Positions 8,631-21,094 of a stretch of 21,094 bases of DNA are shown one piece after another (position 1 is the first letter of the stretch; each line of letters opens with the position of its first letter). The stretch covers positions 1 to 21,094 of the forward strand of contig JAKBAC010000040.1 of assembly GCA_021809365.1 (NCBI GenBank). Direction: 5' to 3'. The translations under genes were made by a program, and so were the position numbers. Source of the stretch: Planctomycetota bacterium (GTDB taxonomy: Bacteria > Planctomycetota > Phycisphaerae > WQYP01). Under the pieces are notes generated by a model. It did no database searches. It worked only from the letters and a program-made list of their open reading frames with translations, and was not told the origin of the DNA.

Positions 8631-9695
8631 ATGAATAACTCCACTACGACAGGCAACGAACCAAAACCCGCTTGTGATGTCGCCGAAACCGTTGCCGATC
8701 TAATCGTATTCGCCAAAAAAGCCGAAAATAAGTTCCGGCAACAGCTTTCCGCGGACGAGGAGATAGTCACACTGGACAAAACAAGGATCCTTTACCATCG
8801 CATGGCTATACCGGAGACCATGCATGCGTTCATCTGGTTCCGAGGGCAGCCGCTCCGAGGAGAGGGGCTGATACCCAAGGTCCAGCGGAGCGCCTTCCGC
8901 CACATTTCCGATAACGAATATTACTACCTCAACCAATTCATGGTTCTGGCCCCAAGCCGCCATCCCGAAAATGTGCCCCAAACCGACGATTACGCGAATT
9001 GGCTGGCATTGGCACAGCATCATGGCCTTCCGACGAGACTTTTGGATTCGTCCGCATCAGTATTGACAGCCGCTTTTTTTGCGGCGGGGAAATGTCCCAA
9101 TCCTGGTGAGGATCGGGATGGGGTGATTTACGCTGCATCTCCTGCCCTCATCAATAGCGAATTCGGAGAATATAAACTTCACAATACGCCTGTGCTTGAA
9201 CTTGTGGATCCCACCGCCATCATCAACGAGAGGCATCTCACGTTGATGACCCCCACGGACCGCGAACACGCTATTATTTATGCTAGGGACCACCGAAGTA
9301 GTGAAAACCCCATAAATTTCATAGATTTGATGCTCCGCTGCGCACAGTCCGAGATCACCGAGCTTATAATCGGAGCGTTCAGCGCGCGGCGAATACAGAG
9401 TAAGAACGCTCCCCCTGTAACGCCACAGGACCAAAGTAAAAAGATACTGGCCGTAATGCCGCGCCAGGAAACCCGCCGGATCATGCAGCAACACGGTGCC
9501 TTCACGATCCACTCCCGCGAAAGCGAGCGCCTTGATCAGGCCAAGAACAGCAATAATTTTCTCACGCAGATTACCATACCGGTCGAACGCAAGGCGCAAA
9601 TTCGAGAGGAGCTCCGGCTGCTGGGAGTTACGCGCAGCCAGCTATTCCAAGATCTCGACAACCTTGCAAGGGAAATCTCAGAACCGCGCGAATGA
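8631..9695 (+). CDS. FRG-domain protein
   Basis: A 354-residue protein built on the FRG domain, named for its Phe-Arg-Gly motif. FRG is at residues 70-72 in IWFRGQP. It is followed by LALAQHHGLPTRLLD (125-139), ASVLTAAFFA (142-151), DGVIYA (163-168) and QQHGAFTIH (286-294). The C-terminus reads ITIPVERKAQIREELRLLG, then SQLFQDLDNLAREI, a typical family ending. All hallmark blocks are present and in order, so the domain is intact. The N-terminal 60 residues are an additional helical region. FRG proteins are frequent in phage, mobile and toxin/defence settings, but their biochemical activity is not one I can state. No Shine-Dalgarno sequence precedes the ATG at 8631, and a -10-like element stands close to it. 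The gene is preceded at a distance by a membrane protein in the same direction. Confidence 0.88.
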   Translation: MNNSTTTGNEPKPACDVAETVADLIVFAKKAENKFRQQLSADEEIVTLDKTRILYHRMAIPETMHAFIWFRGQPLRGEGLIPKVQRSAFRHISDNEYYYLNQFMVLAPSRHPENVPQTDDYANWLALAQHHGLPTRLLDSSASVLTAAFFAAGKCPNPGEDRDGVIYAASPALINSEFGEYKLHNTPVLELVDPTAIINERHLTLMTPTDREHAIIYARDHRSSENPINFIDLMLRCAQSEITELIIGAFSARRIQSKNAPPVTPQDQSKKILAVMPRQETRRIMQQHGAFTIHSRESERLDQAKNSNNFLTQITIPVERKAQIREELRLLGVTRSQLFQDLDNLAREISEPRE

Positions 9696-12765: not shown

Positions 12766-15700
12766 TCAAGGGGCCAAGTACCAATTACGCCGCACCAGCA
12801 CCGCCAGAAGTTGCTGGGGGGTTAATACGCGTGGATCATAGGCCAGGCGAAGCCCCACATCCGCGAAACCGCGGTGGGTGCGGCGCAGATGCCAGTTGAC
12901 GGCGGCGGGTGTGGCCGGCGAAATTTTTCCCAAGGGAGCCAGGGCAGAGCCACCAATAACCAGCATATTTTTTAACGCTGCTGCCGGCAGGAGCTTATTG
13001 ATCGCAGCGCTATTGAGCGTGGCTGGAGTTTTGATCCATGTTTTCAGAGCCTGGCGATAGGTTGATGTATCATTAAAAACGTACACGGCGACATTCCCAG
13101 CCAGATCAGTAAAGGCGTCTTGCGCCGCACCGGAAGCGACCGGTTCAAACCAGAGGAAAGGATTCTTACTGGGGCCGTATTGATGCAAAAAAGGAGCCAT
13201 CGCCGGCACGGCGTAATTGTATAAATCCCAGTAACGGGGCGTGGGCAGGCGCGCATCGCGCGTGGAGTTGACGCTTTTGAGATATGCCACATACGCCGCC
13301 AGTGTCCTGCCGGACAGATGGGCGGACGTGAGATTTTTGCTACCGTTTATCCGATAGGCCTCCTGCCATTCACTTGCGGTAGGCAGGCGGCAGCCCAGCA
13401 AAGCGGCAACATAAATGGCGGCCTTCGGGGGCAAATATTGCACCGGATCATCCAAATTTGGCGGGCCGCCGGCAGTTTTGCTCAGGTGCCCCCCCGCTTT
13501 GGCCAGCATATTTGCGGGGTAACGGGGGGCGTTGTAAATTTGATTGGTGTTGGTAAACCAATGCTGGGCCAGTTCAGCCTCGCCGACGGTCTGATTGTAA
13601 ACCCAGGTGTGCGGACCAAAATAATTACTGTTGGGTTTGATGAGGTTGTAGAAGGAGTTGGACGGCTTCTGGATCAGGTTATGGCTGGAATTCACGGCAT
13701 TAAGAAATACACCCACGCTTAAATCGGTTGTGCATAAATAAAATCGTTTTACGCCATTGGGATTCATGAGATGAAATTTAAGTGTGTTGCTACCTGAGGG
13801 GCTGGTGAAAATCCGAACATGATGGGCAGCTTTGGTCTGCTTCCAACCCGCAAGCGCCGGTCCGGACGGCTTTTGCGCCTGACCGGGTTTGGCTTTAATA
13901 ACGGCTTGCAGTCCCTGGTCAAAAGCTGCAACCTCAGCCGTGCCCTGCAGAGATTGCATAGCCGGTTCAGTCAATGCCCGAGCCAGTAATCGATGCATAC
14001 CCGTGGCAAGGTTCTGGGCCGCTTCCGGGGCCTTTACGCCGAAGCACTGTGCGGAAAATTGATACAGTAAAATATTGAATCGCGCTTGGGGCGTCAGGGT
14101 CTTCAGAGCCGTCAAGTCATCCAACTGCGGTGTATGAGCCAGCATCAGGTGGTAATCTGCGGCAGCGGCGATGGTTTGGGATACCATCGCTGCGGTCGCG
14201 GATTGATTCATCCGCTGCTGCCAACGCAGTGGATATTGCCGCCTCAATTGTGCCAGCAACGCGCGTTTGCGAGCCGCCGCCAGCTTTGATTCAGCGTGCA
14301 CGAGTTGATCCAGTTGCATCGGAATTTCCTGCTCTAAAGCCAGGGGCGAATTTGCGGGCGAGGACGGGATGGCTGCCAGCCGCTGCCAGATAGCTCGAAC
14401 AAACAACGCCTTATTGGCAGACGCGGACAATGCCAGGCGGTAATCTGCCGGAAGCGCGACAGCCGAGGCGGAATCAATTGCGGCAAGCTGATGCAACAGG
14501 GCGACTTTTGTTTGCAAAGCGGATTGAATTTGTGCGTTGGTCCACCAGGGATTCTTCCGGACGGTTGCATACAGGGTGGAAATGGAAACAGCGGGGGAAA
14601 GCGTATCCTGCAGAAGATGGCATTGCGACAGGGCGGTATCAATGGTGTTGAAATCAGCAAGCAGGTGCTGGAAGGTCAAACGCTGTTGCGTCCATTGGGC
14701 GGCCGTGCGGTGGGAGATAACCGGTTTTAGGCCCGACCAAGTAATCTTGGCGAACGCCTGTTTTATCATGGCGGCACGGGCCGGCATCAGAGCGGAGGAA
14801 ATGGCGAGCTTATTCCACGGCCGGTTGAATTGCGACTTGGATTGCGGCAGCTTGGCGGAAAAATCGGTAGCAAGTAAGGACCGGATATTGGAACGAATGG
14901 TTTGAATATGCTTGCTGATCGTGGGAACTTGCCACCGGCGCTTGCGCAGGGTCGTTGTTAGAAGATTGTAACTGGCCTGGTTGGCACCTATTGCAAGTGT
15001 CGGTGCCGGGGCGGGCGCGAAGATTACGGCGGTAATTCTATGAAGATAAGCCGCGTTGACGGTTGGATAAGGGGAAATGTGAAGCACGCGCGGATTGATA
15101 CGATAATGCTTCCCCGCAGGCTGAAAGCCCAGAAATGTCGCGACCCATTTTTTTATATTAATTTGAGAGTCGATGAATGCGGTAACAGTCTGGTTCAGTT
15201 TCGTGAGATTGACCTGGGCGGTCATGACGGAATGTTCAATGTCCAGACGATTTTTCCATATCCACAGATCATGATTGCTGAACACCGCTAATTGAGTTCG
15301 CAACGCCTGTAACTGCGCCTGATAATTGACCGTGGGCGGTTTGGGGAGCCGCAACGCATGGGCTATGCGCTGCTGAACATCCCGGGCTTCAATATTAAAT
15401 TGAAACTGGGATACAACATACGCGTTATCGGGGCCGGGAAGTCTTCGATAGCCCGCCAAGTCCGGGAAATACTTTTTTGGCGAAAGGGTTATGCTCCGCG
15501 GAGGCAGTTTCGCTACCAAGTCCCAGCGGATTTGTTTGCCGTACGCTGCCAAGGCCTTGGATTGCATTTGAGCTGCCGCCAACAAGGATGCCGCGTGATT
15601 TTCCAGCTCGGCGGGATCGGAGGTGGCCGCCAGATAGTGTGCCGCGTACTTGGGAAAGGTGATGATCAGCGGCTCTTTAACTTTTGAGAACTGTTTTAGT

Positions 15701-17094
15701 AACGTATTCAATTGCGGACGAAGAATGGTTACGCGCCGGGCTGCAGAAACTTGTGCAAGCCATTGCGGAGCGGATAAACCGCCGGGGCTCATGGCAAAGC
15801 GCCTTAAATTTGGCTTGCCGGCCCAGGCACTTTTATAGAGTTTCAGGAACGGTGCCAGGGATTGATCTTGCGGCATGGCCGCGAGAACCTGGCGGTTCAA
15901 GCTTTGGGCTGCCGAATTCCAACCGCGCTTTTGCCAGCGCTCCTGCTGCTGCTGCAAGGTGGTATACAGTTTTCCCAAAATACGCTGGGTCTGCATCAGC
16001 AGTACAATGGCATGGCCGAGTTTTTGTGCTTCGTGCGGATGCGCGGAGAGGTCCTTTTGAATTTGCTGATTCGATAACAGGCCGGTGAATTCATGAAGAA
16101 TATCATCCGGATTCAGAATGATGCCGTGCGATAAGGCGGTATTTAGTGGGGCCAAAGCCGGAACTTTGGACAGTGCCTGGCGATCAGCTGTAAACGCTTT
16201 GAACCAGTGCGTATAAGCCGCGGCGTAGGGGGCGTAGGCACCATTGAAGCGTGACATTTCCGCCAATGTACGCACGTGCCGCAGGTAGCCCAATGCCGCG
16301 ACGACCAGCAGAATCAGTGCGGCGGCGGTGCATAGATACAGGGGCTTGCGGCTCTTGCGGGGTTTTAACTTAGCGGCACGCTCCAGGGCTGCGGCAATAT
16401 TGCGCTGGTCTTCGGGCAAGTCTTTATTGAGCAGAAGGCCGCAGAACTCACTCCACGCTCTTCCCTGCGAACCTAAGGATTTGAATTCCGCCATGCCCGG
16501 ATCCAGCGGGGTTGTGGGCGTCCAGCGGCGTGCGGCGACAAATTCGCAGATGACTCGCCCAAGCTGCGATAGATCATCTGATGCAACAGCATTTGCGTTA
16601 AAGACACTGCCGGCGGGATTAGATAAAGCGATATGGGCCAGGGCCGGCGATCCGGTGGAGCAGAAAATATTTTCCGCCCGAAGATTGCCGTGCGTGCGGG
16701 AAGTCAATTTTTGTGCATCCAGCAGCGCGGTAAGGACGGCAGTTGCTACGTGATGCAGATCAGCGGGGGTTGGCGTGACACGCAGGCGAATCAAGCGGCT
16801 TAGGGGCCAGTCAAAGCGTTCCAAGACACAATAGGCAGAGTTGTTATCGCCGGCCTGAATGTCAAAAACCCTGGCCCAAAGCGCTGATTCCTGGGCAATT
16901 AGTTTTTGAAAGTCATAACGGGCGATAAAGTTGGACTGAGCTGCGCGTTGACGCGTGGCATTCCACAGATCATCCGGTGGATTAAAAGCCAGGATAATTT
17001 TGGCGGGAGATTCGGAACTTTCCAGCGCATAGCATATCGCCATGGCCTGCCGGCCTATGATGTGATCGGTTTGATATGGACCGAAATTAGGCAC
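12766..17094 (-). CDS. Pseudokinase - transmembrane - FGE/SUMF1-like fusion protein, T6SS-associated
   Basis: A 1442-residue membrane protein. Residues 1-240 have a protein-kinase fold: PYQTDHIIGRQAMAICYAL looks like a degenerate glycine loop, THGNLRAEN (134-142) occupies the HRDxKxxN position, and DDLSQLGRVICEF (173-185) matches the DxxSLG helix. The catalytic Asp is replaced (HGN for HRD), and DFG reads SNP, so it is a pseudokinase. A basic stretch (KPRKSRK) and one membrane segment (about 251-271) place the rest outside the cytoplasm. About 800 helical residues follow. The C-terminal part (about 1085-1420) is formylglycine-generating-enzyme-like, with GCRLPTASEWQEAYR, FTDLAGNV, VIGGSAL and GFADVGLRL. 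The usual active-site cysteines are not seen. The start is GTG 17094; an in-frame stop lies five codons upstream. Neighbours include a lipoprotein and PAAR-like/DUF3540 genes. Confidence 0.82.
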   Translation of the reverse strand: MPNFGPYQTDHIIGRQAMAICYALESSESPAKIILAFNPPDDLWNATRQRAAQSNFIARYDFQKLIAQESALWARVFDIQAGDNNSAYCVLERFDWPLSRLIRLRVTPTPADLHHVATAVLTALLDAQKLTSRTHGNLRAENIFCSTGSPALAHIALSNPAGSVFNANAVASDDLSQLGRVICEFVAARRWTPTTPLDPGMAEFKSLGSQGRAWSEFCGLLLNKDLPEDQRNIAAALERAAKLKPRKSRKPLYLCTAAALILLVVAALGYLRHVRTLAEMSRFNGAYAPYAAAYTHWFKAFTADRQALSKVPALAPLNTALSHGIILNPDDILHEFTGLLSNQQIQKDLSAHPHEAQKLGHAIVLLMQTQRILGKLYTTLQQQQERWQKRGWNSAAQSLNRQVLAAMPQDQSLAPFLKLYKSAWAGKPNLRRFAMSPGGLSAPQWLAQVSAARRVTILRPQLNTLLKQFSKVKEPLIITFPKYAAHYLAATSDPAELENHAASLLAAAQMQSKALAAYGKQIRWDLVAKLPPRSITLSPKKYFPDLAGYRRLPGPDNAYVVSQFQFNIEARDVQQRIAHALRLPKPPTVNYQAQLQALRTQLAVFSNHDLWIWKNRLDIEHSVMTAQVNLTKLNQTVTAFIDSQINIKKWVATFLGFQPAGKHYRINPRVLHISPYPTVNAAYLHRITAVIFAPAPAPTLAIGANQASYNLLTTTLRKRRWQVPTISKHIQTIRSNIRSLLATDFSAKLPQSKSQFNRPWNKLAISSALMPARAAMIKQAFAKITWSGLKPVISHRTAAQWTQQRLTFQHLLADFNTIDTALSQCHLLQDTLSPAVSISTLYATVRKNPWWTNAQIQSALQTKVALLHQLAAIDSASAVALPADYRLALSASANKALFVRAIWQRLAAIPSSPANSPLALEQEIPMQLDQLVHAESKLAAARKRALLAQLRRQYPLRWQQRMNQSATAAMVSQTIAAAADYHLMLAHTPQLDDLTALKTLTPQARFNILLYQFSAQCFGVKAPEAAQNLATGMHRLLARALTEPAMQSLQGTAEVAAFDQGLQAVIKAKPGQAQKPSGPALAGWKQTKAAHHVRIFTSPSGSNTLKFHLMNPNGVKRFYLCTTDLSVGVFLNAVNSSHNLIQKPSNSFYNLIKPNSNYFGPHTWVYNQTVGEAELAQHWFTNTNQIYNAPRYPANMLAKAGGHLSKTAGGPPNLDDPVQYLPPKAAIYVAALLGCRLPTASEWQEAYRINGSKNLTSAHLSGRTLAAYVAYLKSVNSTRDARLPTPRYWDLYNYAVPAMAPFLHQYGPSKNPFLWFEPVASGAAQDAFTDLAGNVAVYVFNDTSTYRQALKTWIKTPATLNSAAINKLLPAAALKNMLVIGGSALAPLGKISPATPAAVNWHLRRTHRGFADVGLRLAYDPRVLTPQQLLAVLVRRNWYLAP

Positions 17095-17129
17095 CCGGCA
17101 ATTCCATCACGCGTTCGCTGGCGGGAACG

Positions 17130-17138
17130 ACTATACCA
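17130..17138 (-). promoter_or_regulatory. Extended -10 promoter candidate for the pseudokinase-SUMF1 gene
   Basis: On the minus strand TGG-TATAGT is an extended -10 element; the start point would be near 17124, about 30 bases before the GTG. The -35 region is poor (TTCGGC at 17 bases), which an extended -10 can tolerate. Confidence 0.4.
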
Positions 17139-17201
17139 TGCTTCACAACAGTGCCGAAATAACCTCCCGCTTTGCGCTGCAGGCCCGGCTGATACCATCG
17201 G

Positions 17202-17218
17202 CATAGCCGGCGGCTATG
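17202..17218. repeat. Perfect 17-base palindrome upstream of the pseudokinase gene
   Basis: CATAGCCG and CGGCTATG flank a single central base. The repeat lies about 65-85 bases upstream of the extended -10 element, inside the 179-base gap after the lipoprotein gene. It could be a regulator-binding site. No T-run supports termination. Confidence 0.45.
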
Positions 17219-17273
17219 TGATGGAATGCAAGCCGAGCCTTGGGAAATTACGCGATACCCGCTGCATACCGCT

Positions 17274-17813
17274 TTAGCTTTTTTTCGGCTTAGGGGGCGT
17301 TTGGCACACCACGCCGCTGTTTTTAATTAAAATTTTGATTGGATTGGCCGATCCGGGCCAGCGTGATTTTTTCAGCGGCAGGATCAGCCGACGCGGATCT
17401 TCCGGGCCGGGCATATCCTGACGAATTCCCGGCAACTGAGCCAGTACAAACAGAGAGGTGTCGCCATTTTTCTTCCATTGCTTCCATATTGGATTGTGTT
17501 TGGAGAATACGACTTGGGCGGACGAACCGGGAGTAAAGTTAAGCGTGGCTTTGAGTGCACCGGAGCGGAGCAGATCACCGGCGGAAAAGTACCGGGTCAT
17601 GGAATAGTTATACCAGCGTTTATAATCCGTGGCGTTCACACCCACGAGATCCACGGCAATGGTGCTGGTGGATTGATTATTAACCTGCAAGCTCTGGCCG
17701 AGGGTGAACTGCGTATTGCGGTCAATCGGCCCGCTGGAGCAGGCGGTCAAACCCAGCAGCAGCACCATCAGCATGGCACCAGCAAGTGCTCTACTTTGCG
17801 AAGTACATTTCAT
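17274..17813 (-). CDS. Outer-membrane-type lipoprotein of the T6SS-associated locus
   Basis: A 179-residue lipoprotein. The signal peptide is hydrophobic (AGAMLMVLLLGLTAC), and Cys25 ends the lipobox LTAC. Ser at +2 avoids the inner-membrane retention signal, so outer-membrane sorting is expected if Lol rules apply. The mature part is short and beta-rich, with LQVNNQSTSTIAVDLVGVNA and YFSAGDLLRSGALKATLNF, and ends in a Lys/Pro-rich tail. Size and position match T6SS lipoproteins such as TssJ or TagQ, but no diagnostic motif is seen, so the family is not assigned. AAGGA lies six bases before the ATG. It follows the 649-residue gene after 42 bases and precedes the pseudokinase-SUMF1 gene. Confidence 0.78.
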   Translation of the reverse strand: MKCTSQSRALAGAMLMVLLLGLTACSSGPIDRNTQFTLGQSLQVNNQSTSTIAVDLVGVNATDYKRWYNYSMTRYFSAGDLLRSGALKATLNFTPGSSAQVVFSKHNPIWKQWKKNGDTSLFVLAQLPGIRQDMPGPEDPRRLILPLKKSRWPGSANPIKILIKNSGVVCQTPPKPKKS

Positions 17814-17855: not shown

Positions 17856-19805
17856 TTACATTCCCATTTGAAACCGGCGGATCACCGCGTGAACCTCTCG
17901 GTTTACCTGCCAATCAATTACAATCAGGCTTCGTGTTTGAATCAAGAGCCGATCCAGTTTGGCGGCTGCCGGTTCAAACACATTGGCCATCGCGGCGGAG
18001 GGCATTGTACCGTATCCGCGGCAAAAGCTGTCGGGGCCGATTCCGGGAATCATCTGAACAATCAGCGAGAGGATATCCGCCCACAACCGCGAGGGGATTA
18101 ATTCGCTATCCTGTTCTTGAACGCCGGTGGCTTGAAATACATTTTGCGGCCCCAGGGTTTTATTCCAGCGGCTGTCACGCGACAGAATATCCATGATGCG
18201 GTTATCAAGGGGTTTATCCGCCGTATATTCCGTTGCAAGTTGCCGCGCCAGGCTGTTTAGTTCATCCGCGACCACGGGCAGCGGATTGGCCGCATGAACC
18301 ACCAGTGCTCTCAGGGCCAGCACGGCCAGAGAATAGAGATCATAGGCGGTGTCCATTCGAACAACGCATTGCATCCAGACCGGCTGCAGGGTGGATCCCT
18401 CGGCGGCTTTGAGGACACCAGCCAATCGCGGATGCATCGGTTGGTGCAGCGATCGGAAGCGATACTCCCCCACCGCCAGTGCGGAATCCTGTTCCACGGA
18501 GCCAGCCACCAGAACGCGTTGGTCAGATAATCCCAGACGCAGGCAGACCAGATCATCGGCGCGCACCGTAACGGCATCAAGGTTGCTTAAGGTCCCTTCG
18601 ACATATATCGAATGGTCGCTTTCGATGGTCACGGTGCGCAGGCGCAGGGCCGCCTTTTCGGTGACCATGGACCGGCCTTCCATGGTGGGCTGATAAACGC
18701 CCGGCGATATTTTTGAGCCATGGGTAAAGACCACGGCCTGCGCATCGGACAGTTCCAGGCGGGCGGCGTCGCCGCAATCAACAAGCCGCACCTGACCGGT
18801 CCATAAGAATGGCAGCGCCACCGCGGGATTTGCCAGGGAGATCTGAAAACTGGAACAGTGTAAATTCAGGATGGGGCGTTGCAGCGTGCGAACGGCAGTC
18901 TGAGTTTGGTGCACCGCATCGGCCAGGAATTTGAGCTTCAGGTGCAGGCTTTCGATGATGCGACCTCTTTGCCCGTGCCGGCCTAGAAATACGGTTCCGG
19001 AAGTTGCGATTTCGCCCGTATCGCGGAGTATCTGGGCGACCTTGTCAAAATCGGCCGGCGTTTTGCCCACAGGCAGGCCGTCATATTTGGCACCGCCGAG
19101 CACATCCAGAAAAGCTTCAGCGGACAGTGCACTGAATTTGGAAATGTGCATTAACCAGCCGGCGGAGTTCCAGGCGATTAAGGCGCGTTCCGCCAGGACA
19201 TCGCGCAGATATTGTGTGTTTTCATTGGCGGGAGCGTCCTCCTGCACGGCAAGAAACAGTGGCTGGCCATCGGTGGATTGAACCGTCAGGTAACGAAACA
19301 GGCTGCGGGAATAGGCGGGTAATTTATGGGCGGACAGCAATACATCATCGCAGCAAAGTTTCCAGGTTTGCTGGGAAGCTTCATCAATTAAGGGCTGGAT
19401 TTTCCGGGCGGTGAAATTAAAAAACAGCGGTATGGGCGGTTGGTTTTCCCATGTGCCTGTCATGATGAAATCTTCGGTGCCACTGCGTGCGGCCTGGCAG
19501 TTGCTTTTCCATCGTTCATCCAGAAGATGATTGTTCCAGTGCGTGCGGACAGCTTCGGGGCCATCCATTGCAAAGTCCTGCGTTTGAAGCGCAATTTCAA
19601 CCCATTGCAGGACAGTGCCGACTTGATCGGTCAGACAACCGAGAAAACAGCGGGCGTCAAATGTTTCCCGCACCGGCACAAACCAGCCGGCAACGGGATC
19701 AGCCTTGAGGCGGATAACAGCGCAAAGCCGAATCGCCGCATCAGGCGGGGCGATGAACGGGCAGGCCTGAAAGCCTGTCGGCATAGATGGTGTAAGTTGG
19801 GCCAT
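17856..19805 (-). CDS. 649-residue protein with a weakly kinase-like second half, T6SS-associated
   Basis: I do not recognise a named family. There is no signal peptide or membrane segment, so it is probably cytoplasmic. The N-terminal half (1-220) is mixed alpha/beta. The second half contains RPILNLHCSSFQISL (310-324), GQVRLVDCG (337-345) and MDTAYDLYSLAVLALRALV (484-502). Their order and spacing recall the catalytic loop, the strand before DFG, and the DxYSLG helix of protein kinases. Between the second and third lies an insertion of about 100 residues, beta-rich by eye. The catalytic Asp, Lys and DFG are missing, so if it is a kinase fold it is a dead one. The ATG at 19805 has AGAGGA about eleven bases upstream. 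It lies between the PAAR-like gene and the lipoprotein gene and may act as a scaffold or adaptor. Confidence 0.7.
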   Translation of the reverse strand: MAQLTPSMPTGFQACPFIAPPDAAIRLCAVIRLKADPVAGWFVPVRETFDARCFLGCLTDQVGTVLQWVEIALQTQDFAMDGPEAVRTHWNNHLLDERWKSNCQAARSGTEDFIMTGTWENQPPIPLFFNFTARKIQPLIDEASQQTWKLCCDDVLLSAHKLPAYSRSLFRYLTVQSTDGQPLFLAVQEDAPANENTQYLRDVLAERALIAWNSAGWLMHISKFSALSAEAFLDVLGGAKYDGLPVGKTPADFDKVAQILRDTGEIATSGTVFLGRHGQRGRIIESLHLKLKFLADAVHQTQTAVRTLQRPILNLHCSSFQISLANPAVALPFLWTGQVRLVDCGDAARLELSDAQAVVFTHGSKISPGVYQPTMEGRSMVTEKAALRLRTVTIESDHSIYVEGTLSNLDAVTVRADDLVCLRLGLSDQRVLVAGSVEQDSALAVGEYRFRSLHQPMHPRLAGVLKAAEGSTLQPVWMQCVVRMDTAYDLYSLAVLALRALVVHAANPLPVVADELNSLARQLATEYTADKPLDNRIMDILSRDSRWNKTLGPQNVFQATGVQEQDSELIPSRLWADILSLIVQMIPGIGPDSFCRGYGTMPSAAMANVFEPAAAKLDRLLIQTRSLIVIDWQVNREVHAVIRRFQMGM

Positions 19806-19914: not shown

Positions 19915-20319
19915 CTACGAGGCAACCATGACCTTGGCCTGACTGGGCGCGATTTGTGCACCTGAGGGCATATTGGCATTGGAACCGTTATGCCCCGTTG
20001 TGCTGGTAAGGTAGACTGCGGGCTGGCCCTGTATTTTTACCTTGGTGCTGCCTTTTTTAAACGCCACGGTTTGCATATTGGTGCCGGAAACTACTCCGCC
20101 GGCGGTTCCGGCTTCATCGCCTTGAGATTGCGACATTTGCGTATTGAGATTGGCGGCCTCCTTGCTGTCAAACTTGACTTTGGTGGAGGTTTTTTGCGCT
20201 TGCGCTAGATTGCCGATGTTCGGATACGGAATCGGTATCGGACCGGCGGGCGATGGCGTTTTGCAAACGTCGGGCATGCCCATACACACGCCGCCGCCTT
20301 TGCTTGATGCTGGAAACAT
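19915..20319 (-). CDS. PAAR-like DUF4150 protein (T6SS spike tip)
   Basis: A 134-residue protein of the DUF4150/PAAR-like group, which caps the VgrG spike of type VI secretion systems and can carry effectors. The family hallmarks are VCMGMPDVCKTPSPAGPIPI followed by PYPNIG, then the long repeat-like region with GTNMQTVAFKKGSTKVKI. A GTG at 20328 is in frame. The ATG at 20319 is preferred because AGGAG stands eight bases upstream. There is no C-terminal effector domain, so it is a stand-alone tip. It follows the DUF3540 gene after 18 bases, an order typical of DUF2169/DUF3540/DUF4150 cargo clusters. Confidence 0.85.
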   Translation of the reverse strand: MFPASSKGGGVCMGMPDVCKTPSPAGPIPIPYPNIGNLAQAQKTSTKVKFDSKEAANLNTQMSQSQGDEAGTAGGVVSGTNMQTVAFKKGSTKVKIQGQPAVYLTSTTGHNGSNANMPSGAQIAPSQAKVMVAS

Positions 20320-20337
20320 AGAAAACACTCCTGCAAA

Positions 20338-21094
20338 TTAACCCAGGTGAATCTGATCGGCTTTAACCTTGAAATCTTCCTGCGTGTTGAGGTAGGTATT
20401 CTGGCTGCGGCTATGCCAGGTGGATTTAACGATCATCCGCAGGCGGCCCGAGCAAAGCTGGCAAAGCTCCTCTACGCTCTGATACACGTTCTTACAACGG
20501 CTGATCAGGGTTTCGGTAATCAGCTCGGTGCGGTTTGAGGTGACTTTGATATTTTCAAGGTCACCGGTCAGCGACGAAGATTTTACAGCCGTGCGATCGG
20601 CGGCAAGATTAAATTTTTCCGCAGTTACATGGACTTCCGGCGATTTAAGTTTTGCAGTATCAGATCGCAGACGCAGTTGCGACAATGCCCCCTTAAGAGC
20701 ATGGATGATGCCGACATCCACCGCCCGGCTGGCCTGAATGGCTACGGAGTCAGCCTCCATGCGGATTTGTTTTCCAGCGCGAAACACCATATCGCCATCG
20801 GGAGCGACCAATTCCAATCCGCCGGTATCAGCGTGAATGCGGGTTTGGCGCGAGTGAGGATTGTATTCCAGAACCAGGTTATTTTCGGGGGAGAAGATGC
20901 GTACATAGGGTTGCGTGTCGGCGTTGGATATTTCCGCGTAACCGCCACCCGGTAGAGGCCGCTTTTCCACCGGTGCTGGGTTCTGCGAACCGGGAATTAT
21001 TCCTATGGCGTAAAGACATTGGGCGTCCTGACCGGCGATCAGAACCTGTTGGCCGATGTGCGCGACTTGGCCATAGCCCATCGCCGCAGTGGCC
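20338..21094 (-). CDS. DUF3540 protein, T6SS-associated, 5' end off the window
   Basis: A DUF3540 family protein, found in T6SS spike/cargo clusters next to DUF4150 and DUF2169 genes. The middle (about LVLEYNPHSRQTRIHADTGG to TAEKFNLAADRTAVKSSS) is a run of short beta-strand repeats like the triangular beta-helix of VgrG and gp5 spikes, followed by a helical segment with CKNVYQSVEELCQLCSG. An ATG at 21081 is available, but the frame stays open to the window edge. The residues GQQVLIAGQDAQCLYAIGII are already inside the family's N-terminal domain, so the true start is most likely beyond 21094. The stop is TAA at 20338, 18 bases before the DUF4150 start. Confidence 0.8.
   Translation of the reverse strand, partial: ATAAMGYGQVAHIGQQVLIAGQDAQCLYAIGIIPGSQNPAPVEKRPLPGGGYAEISNADTQPYVRIFSPENNLVLEYNPHSRQTRIHADTGGLELVAPDGDMVFRAGKQIRMEADSVAIQASRAVDVGIIHALKGALSQLRLRSDTAKLKSPEVHVTAEKFNLAADRTAVKSSSLTGDLENIKVTSNRTELITETLISRCKNVYQSVEELCQLCSGRLRMIVKSTWHSRSQNTYLNTQEDFKVKADQIHLG

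What the first reader, a model, noticed from the sequence alone, without database searches (positions are those of the whole stretch)
12766..17813. A pseudokinase and a SUMF1-like domain joined across the membrane, beside a lipoprotein, in a T6SS-associated locus
Seen: kinase-like N-terminus without HRD/DFG residues, one membrane segment, about 800 helical residues, then an FGE/SUMF1-like domain without active-site cysteines; the adjacent gene encodes a lipoprotein, and two genes on are DUF4150 and DUF3540. Known: in the Pseudomonas H1-T6SS, TagQ (lipoprotein), TagR (SUMF1-like, periplasmic) and PpkA (membrane kinase) act in series to switch on secretion. Inference: this locus fuses the TagR-like and PpkA-like parts in one chain and has lost catalysis in both, so it may signal by conformational coupling from the envelope to the secretion machine. 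I do not know of a description of such a fusion.
Basis: partly seen in the sequence, partly recalled or inferred. Interest (0 to 1): 0.82.

Follow-up and report, generated by a model that had tools for sequence, protein, structure and literature searches.

The report
Dead-kinase transmembrane T6SS regulator
In a group of Planctomycetes, a molecular spear gun (type VI secretion system) comes with one long membrane-spanning protein that seems to merge an inactive kinase with an inactive sulfatase-activator domain, which suggests the weapon may be switched by shape change instead of by phosphorylation.

Summary
The 1442-aa protein (12766-17094, minus strand) has a kinase-related N-domain, one membrane segment, a long helical stretch and an FGE-like C-domain, without HRD/DFG aspartates or the FGE cysteine pair. 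It lies in a real T6SS locus: TssG-ClpV-VgrG-DUF2169-PPR-DUF3540-DUF4150-649aa-lipoprotein-this protein.

The rest is strengthened. 649aa-TssJ-fusion is a recurrent trio. A related tail also occurs on TagF-like domains (8 sequences), in three loci right behind TssM: two kinds of T6SS regulator, PpkA-like and TagF-like, on one kind of tail. The HRD aspartate is missing in 39 of 40 aligned members; no FHA domain was found near the fusion locus in 13 genomes; selection on the pseudokinase is purifying (dN/dS 0.11-0.14).

Best reading: an envelope-spanning, phosphorylation-independent T6SS regulator, a new variant of the TagR-PpkA kind. The mechanism is inferred. The family is not T6SS-exclusive: 9 of 57 genomes with a member lack detected VipB and TssM.

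The parts
12766..17094 (-). 1442-aa fusion protein: pseudokinase - one TM - helical region - FGE-like domain
16357..17094 (-). kinase-like domain, residues 1-246, cytosolic by inference
   Evidence: profile match to solved Ser/Thr kinases, StkP E 1.1e-6; dN/dS 0.11-0.14 in four comparisons
16684..16692 (-). HGN (residues 135-137) in place of the HRD catalytic motif
16282..16338 (-). single hydrophobic membrane segment, residues ~253-271
   Evidence: hydropathy
13870..16269 (-). mostly helical region, residues 276-1075, presumed periplasmic
   Evidence: model of residues 271-1442; parts of it recognisable in 5 of 8 TagF-type proteins
12817..13869 (-). FGE/SUMF1-like domain without the cysteine pair, residues 1076-1426
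17274..17813 (-). lipoprotein, 179 aa: TssJ by predicted fold
17856..19805 (-). 649-aa conserved partner of unknown family, upstream of tssJ
19915..20328 (-). DUF4150 PAAR-like spike-tip protein
   Evidence: Tox-PAAR-like E 1.6e-36
20338..21094 (-). DUF3540 protein (TvpC-like), runs off the window end
   Evidence: E 2e-23; full frame of 296 aa in L027

Best explanation
It is a single-chain, envelope-spanning regulator of the T6SS in Phycisphaerae. One end is a PpkA-related pseudokinase; the other is a TagR-like FGE-fold domain on a long helical stalk. SHOWN (by sequence or model): domain order, one membrane segment, loss of both catalytic centres, recurrent location next to tssJ and the tssKLM genes, purifying selection, and a related tail on a TagF-like domain. 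INFERRED: the pseudokinase is cytosolic and the FGE-like end periplasmic; the FGE-like domain reads the state of the outer envelope or of the TssJ-TssM complex; the change is passed through stalk and membrane to the pseudokinase, which acts as a scaffold or docking switch for membrane-complex and baseplate parts and is opposed by TagF. Phosphorylation is not used, because the Asp is gone and no FHA reader was found in the locus.
For: (1) Among 61 relatives the protein is found in 13 of 13 genomes with VipB and in 1 of 48 without. In the class, 57 of 397 genomes match the family profile, 74 have VipB, 40 have both. (2) TssJ lies directly upstream in 19 of 25 genomes with a kinase-type fusion whose loci I opened (six of the 19 are one genus), and the 649-aa gene upstream of TssJ in 17 of these 19; fullest order 649aa-TssJ-fusion-FHAq-TssK-TssL-TssM-TagF. 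(3) A related tail on TagF-like domains in 8 sequences: P0015, P0017, P0137, P0138, G046, G436, G664, G688. In G046 the tails of the two proteins are 55% identical over 730 aa and 35% over 405 aa; profile comparison of the pseudokinase and TagF-like domains finds no relation (probability 0.1). (4) Published T6SSs couple a periplasmic or outer-membrane regulator to PpkA's periplasmic domain: RtkS and TssW shown, TagR 'probably' (passages); TagF acts on Fha or on the membrane complex (passages). (5) HRD Asp absent in 39 of 40. FHA domains occur in 13 of 13 genomes searched, but none within 230 kb of the fusion in G056, G420, G363, and none on contigs seen to carry the fusion or the main VipB in the other ten. 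(6) Pseudokinase dN/dS 0.11-0.14.
Against: 9 of 57 genomes with a family member have no VipB or TssM hit, among them single-contig G449; no tss gene was seen around the G449, G584, G503, G632 and G688 genes (5 of 29 genomes opened), and G688 holds a TagF-type protein. 34 VipB genomes had no family match. No TagR sequence was held for comparison. The FGE part of the model has low confidence and Foldseek gave no hit at E<=0.001. The kinase domain was not modelled. Topology, partners and function are untested. TagF rests on a weak match (TIGR03373 E 5.4e-4, below cut-off, in 1 of 7 TagF-like proteins scanned; TagF_N E 0.018 in P0015), a shared motif and position behind TssM; its profile found no TagF structure. 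The middle region was recognised in 5 of 8 TagF-type proteins only. A diverged FHA domain could be missed.
Confidence: 0.55

Rival explanations
1. It is mainly a structural tether of the T6SS membrane complex: the long stalk bridges the planctomycete periplasm and holds TssJ and TssM, and the pseudo-enzyme domains are only docking modules.
For: Adjacent to TssJ in 19 of 25 genomes opened; long helical stalk; both active sites dead.
Against: A related tail carries TagF-like domains, and TagF is a known repressor elsewhere (passages); some genomes carry a member without detected T6SS genes; other VipB genomes of the class had no match. TssM with its N-domain is present in the same genome, so the fusion does not replace TssM.
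Confidence: 0.25
2. It belongs to an envelope-sensor family of Phycisphaerae, not specific to T6SS, that T6SS loci recruited; in this window it still acts on something other than the T6SS.
For: Members with no tss neighbour in 5 of 29 genomes opened; 9 of 57 genomes with a member but no VipB or TssM hit.
Against: Among the window's 61 relatives it is in 13 of 13 VipB genomes and 1 of 48 others, in a recurrent order with TssJ.
Confidence: 0.12
3. The kinase-like domain is still an enzyme (residual kinase or AMP transfer) using other residues.
For: 14 of 40 members keep the VAIK lysine, 25 of 40 the loop Asn, 17 of 40 the DFG Asp, so nucleotide binding is possible in some; the window protein keeps the loop Asn.
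Against: The window protein lacks VAIK Lys, HRD Asp and DFG Asp; no FHA reader found in the locus.
Confidence: 0.05
4. Annotation artefact: an unrelated large protein with chance resemblances.
For: No single-sequence Pfam hit passes cut-off in the window protein.
Against: Profile match to kinases, above-cut-off FGE hits in 2 of 5 homologues, conserved motifs and synteny.
Confidence: 0.03

Closest known systems
PpkA / TagR branch of the threonine phosphorylation pathway (Pseudomonas H1-T6SS; RtkS-PpkA in Serratia, TssW-PpkA in Acidovorax)
   Same: Kinase domain, membrane segment, periplasmic regulatory part, T6SS locus (passages). That TagR is SUMF1-like is recalled and taken from the finding; no call showed it.
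   Different: Here the sensor-like and kinase-like parts are one chain, both catalytically dead, and no FHA domain was found nearby.
TagF and the TagF-PppA fusion of Agrobacterium
   Same: TagF is a posttranslational T6SS repressor and is known as a fusion (passages); here a TagF-like gene follows TssM where the stretch reaches it.
   Different: Here TagF-like domains can be fused to the same kind of transmembrane FGE-type tail as the pseudokinase.
TssJ (SciN/Lip) lipoprotein
   Same: Fold match to TssJ of E. coli, P. aeruginosa and S. marcescens, lipobox, T6SS locus.
   Different: No Pfam match. The wider family (Opitutaceae, Lentisphaerae names) was not placed in its loci.
Tvp class III accessory set of Serratia marcescens
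   Same: VgrG, DUF2169 with pentapeptide extension, separate pentapeptide protein, DUF3540, DUF4150 (paper passages).
   Different: Another phylum. This explains DUF3540/DUF4150, which are not signalling parts.
Kinase-FGE fusions such as chlamydial Pkn1; JAK pseudokinase domain with HGN/DPG motifs (both recalled)
   Same: Kinase plus FGE-type domain in one chain; HGN in place of HRD and, in some members here, DP in place of DF.
   Different: No T6SS link or transmembrane stalk of this kind is known to me; recalled, not tested.

Membership tests
T6SS PpkA kinase | protein kinase domain | tested here: met
   profile vs solved kinases, E 1.1e-6; fold itself not modelled
T6SS PpkA kinase | catalytic HRD Asp and DFG Asp | tested here: not met
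   HGN and SNP
T6SS PpkA kinase | one membrane segment between the kinase domain and the C-terminal part | tested here: met
   one hydrophobic segment; side of the membrane is inferred
T6SS PpkA kinase | encoded in a T6SS locus | tested here: met
T6SS PpkA kinase | FHA-domain partner in the locus | tested here: not met
   PF00498 hits of 13 genomes lie elsewhere; FHAq, between the fusion and TssK, has no FHA hit in 6 members. Thresholds apply; the window's own genome is a draft
T6SS PpkA kinase | phosphorylates Fha or TssL | not testable with these tools
   needs biochemistry
TagR | FGE/SUMF1-like domain (feature recalled) | tested here: met
TagR | separate exported protein | tested here: not met
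   fused to the pseudokinase
TagR | sequence relation to Pseudomonas TagR | not tested
   no TagR sequence was held
Formylglycine-generating enzyme | active-site cysteine pair after GGS (place recalled) | tested here: not met
   absent in 33 of 33 aligned tails
TssJ | lipoprotein signal | tested here: met
   lipobox Cys in 83 of 83
TssJ | TssJ-type transthyretin-like fold | tested here: met
TssJ | binds the TssM C-terminal domain | not testable with these tools
   needs a binding assay
TagQ | fold or sequence relation to TagQ | tested here: inconclusive
   no TagQ sequence held; the TssJ match explains the gene
TagF | TagF domain in the sister fusions | tested here: inconclusive
   TIGR03373 E 5.4e-4 below cut-off in P0015, none in six other TagF-like proteins; PF09867 E 0.018; FGKHPGW stretch invariant in 6 of 6; behind TssM
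Tvp class III | VgrG + DUF2169-PPR + PPR + DUF3540 + DUF4150 | tested here: met
   definition from paper passages

The most novel reading that the evidence does not exclude
A phosphorylation-free version of the T6SS 'threonine phosphorylation pathway': a pair of opposing transmembrane regulators, pseudokinase (on) and TagF (off), share one exchangeable periplasmic sensor tail that reads the TssJ-TssM complex, so the weapon is gated by mechanical coupling across the envelope, with no phosphate transfer at all.
Probability: 0.3. Interest if true: 0.8.

Novelty: new variant of a known kind. Interest (0 to 1): 0.6.

Why it matters
How a periplasmic signal reaches PpkA is still argued; one held paper says TagR acts 'probably by direct interaction' with PpkA's periplasmic domain (passage of PMC6082577). 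A natural fusion of a TagR-like and a PpkA-like part fits direct contact, and the dead active sites let one ask whether the kinase's scaffold role can work without phosphate. The parallel TagF fusion gives a ready genetic test of on/off balance.

Tried and rejected
Considered and rejected: (a) the fusion as a TssM replacement: TssM is present in the window's own genome on another contig (G000:C113) and next to the fusion in relatives. (b) The lipoprotein as TagQ: TssJ fold. (c) DUF4150/DUF3540 as signalling parts: they fit the Tvp class III spike set. (d) FHAq (about 200-340 aa, between the fusion and TssK) as a Fha protein: no FHA hit in six members, T6SS_FHA_C only at E 0.18 in one, no convincing solved-structure match (best E 0.54); identity left open. 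(e) The 649-aa protein: no Pfam hit better than E 0.03, solved-structure best E 0.14.

Led nowhere: TssM and TagF profiles against solved structures, NCBIfam on the fusion, Rfam and tRNA scans of the window, Foldseek with the periplasmic model. The class-wide TssM count did not complete. The FGE-sulfatase search of G000 was negative even for the window gene, so it cannot count such tails. Print: listings (20 of 87 papers shown; 20 of 56; 12 of 167; 3 of 3; 15 of 109; 15 of 3,215; 2 of 2) showed no paper on such a fusion or on a Phycisphaerae T6SS regulator by title or start of abstract; subscription papers are mostly not held.

Limits of counts: the 40 rows include the window protein and close relatives. 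The 57 genomes match the profile somewhere, so they include TagF-type and tail-only members, and that search scored two candidates per genome. The loci (29 genomes: 28 of the 57, plus G198) were picked by me. Genomes not printed as hits were taken as absent; many are drafts. A4 used 82 of the 119 other hits listed. The tail profile was built from most of the proteins it then found; independent signs are. The middle profile contained G046's kinase-type protein and so favours its sister.

Full report
WHERE. The window lies in a 3.86-Mb draft genome (G000, contig C198, reversed). Named relatives of the protein are Phycisphaerales/Planctomycetota MAGs. The contig begins inside TssG and runs TssG, ClpV-type ATPase, VgrG, DUF2169 with pentapeptide repeats, pentapeptide protein, DUF3540, DUF4150, the 649-aa gene, the lipoprotein, the 1442-aa protein, PurF. 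TssF, ImpE, Hcp, VipB and TssA lie on contig C202, and part of TssL and TssM on C113 of the same genome.

SYNTENY. I opened 28 stretches from 26 genomes with one script. 25 genomes have the pseudokinase-FGE fusion. TssJ lies directly upstream in 19 of 25; the 649-aa gene upstream of TssJ in 17 of these 19. The fullest order (G436, G420, G198, G016) is 649aa-TssJ-fusion-FHAq-TssK-TssL-TssM, then TagF where the stretch reaches it. In five genomes (G575, G587, G620, G635, G664) the fusion lies with FHAq, TssL, TssM and TagF, but no TssJ, TssK or VipB was seen. G449 has the fusion with no tss gene in 39 kb. G584 has a membrane segment and tail without either regulator domain, and no tss gene in 38 kb. 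Three further loci: G503 (kinase domain, no tail hit), G632 (tail, frame cut by the end of the stretch) and G688 (TagF-tail), none with a tss gene in the 15-19 kb fetched.

THE TAIL IS EXCHANGED. Eight proteins carry a TagF-like domain in place of the pseudokinase: P0015, P0017, P0137, P0138, G046, G436, G664, G688. The window protein alone found P0015 (E 1.2e-23) and P0017 (3.9e-15). In G046, G436 and G664 both versions exist in one genome and the TagF version follows TssM. In G046 the tails are 55% identical over 730 aa plus 35% over 405 aa. A profile of the middle region from kinase-type proteins finds 5 of 8 TagF-type proteins (G046 3e-41, P0015 6e-24, G664 2e-8, G436 4e-8, G688 3e-6), not P0017, P0137 or P0138, and not the two TssM controls. 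The cytosolic domains show no relation. G014 has a third form, membrane segment plus tail only, in tandem with the fusion.

CO-OCCURRENCE. In 61 relatives: fusion in 14, VipB in 13, both in 13. In 397 class genomes: a family match in 57 (E<=1e-10), VipB in 74, both in 40, Fisher P 2.5e-21 without correction for kinship. Of the 17 with a match and no VipB, 8 have TssM and 9 do not. 34 genomes have VipB without a match, so it marks some T6SS lineages, not T6SS in general, and it is not confined to T6SS.

NO SIGN OF PHOSPHO-SIGNALLING IN THE LOCUS. FHA domains are present in all 13 genomes searched, but none lies within 230 kb of the fusion in G056, G420 and G363 (one contig each), and in the other ten none is on a contig that or 81 show to carry the fusion or the main VipB gene. 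FHAq, in the place where I would expect fha (recalled order), has no FHA hit. A diverged FHA domain below threshold is not excluded.

MECHANISM. In known systems a periplasmic or outer-membrane protein (RtkS, TssW; probably TagR) acts on the periplasmic part of the kinase PpkA, and TagF blocks Fha or the membrane complex (passages only of PMC6082577, PMC12607579, PMC10482370, PMC5995506). Here the two halves of the first step are one chain and the repressor can bear the same kind of tail. The simplest reading is that the tail senses the TssJ-TssM or outer-envelope state and the cytosolic heads, pseudokinase and TagF, set assembly on or off by contact. The sensing and the on/off roles are inference.

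NOVELTY. Kinase-FGE fusions as such are known from recall (chlamydial Pkn1), and TagF fusions exist (TagF-PppA). The listings showed no paper on a T6SS pseudokinase-FGE or TagF-FGE transmembrane fusion. I class it as a new variant of a known kind.

Noticed in passing
L133, L131/L132, L137, L139, L135 (genomes G575, G587, G620, G635, G664): Pseudokinase-FGE, FHAq, TssL, TssM and TagF genes together with no TssJ, TssK or VipB seen nearby and no VipB hit in the genome: possibly a T6SS-derived membrane complex without a sheath.
   Followed up: partly
L035:6459-10310 (G014): A tandem third form: membrane segment, helical region and FGE-like tail with no cytosolic regulator domain.
   Followed up: partly
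L127/L128 (G449) and L129/L130 (G584): Members of the tail family with no tss gene in 38-39 kb, in genomes without VipB or TssM hits.
   Followed up: partly
window 17856-19805, minus strand: 649-aa protein, upstream of TssJ in 17 of 19 loci, no known family.
   Followed up: partly
window 19915-21094 and L027:3874-12472: A complete Tvp class III spike set in a planctomycete.
   Followed up: yes
window 8631-9695, plus strand: FRG-domain protein (E 4.6e-18).
   Followed up: no
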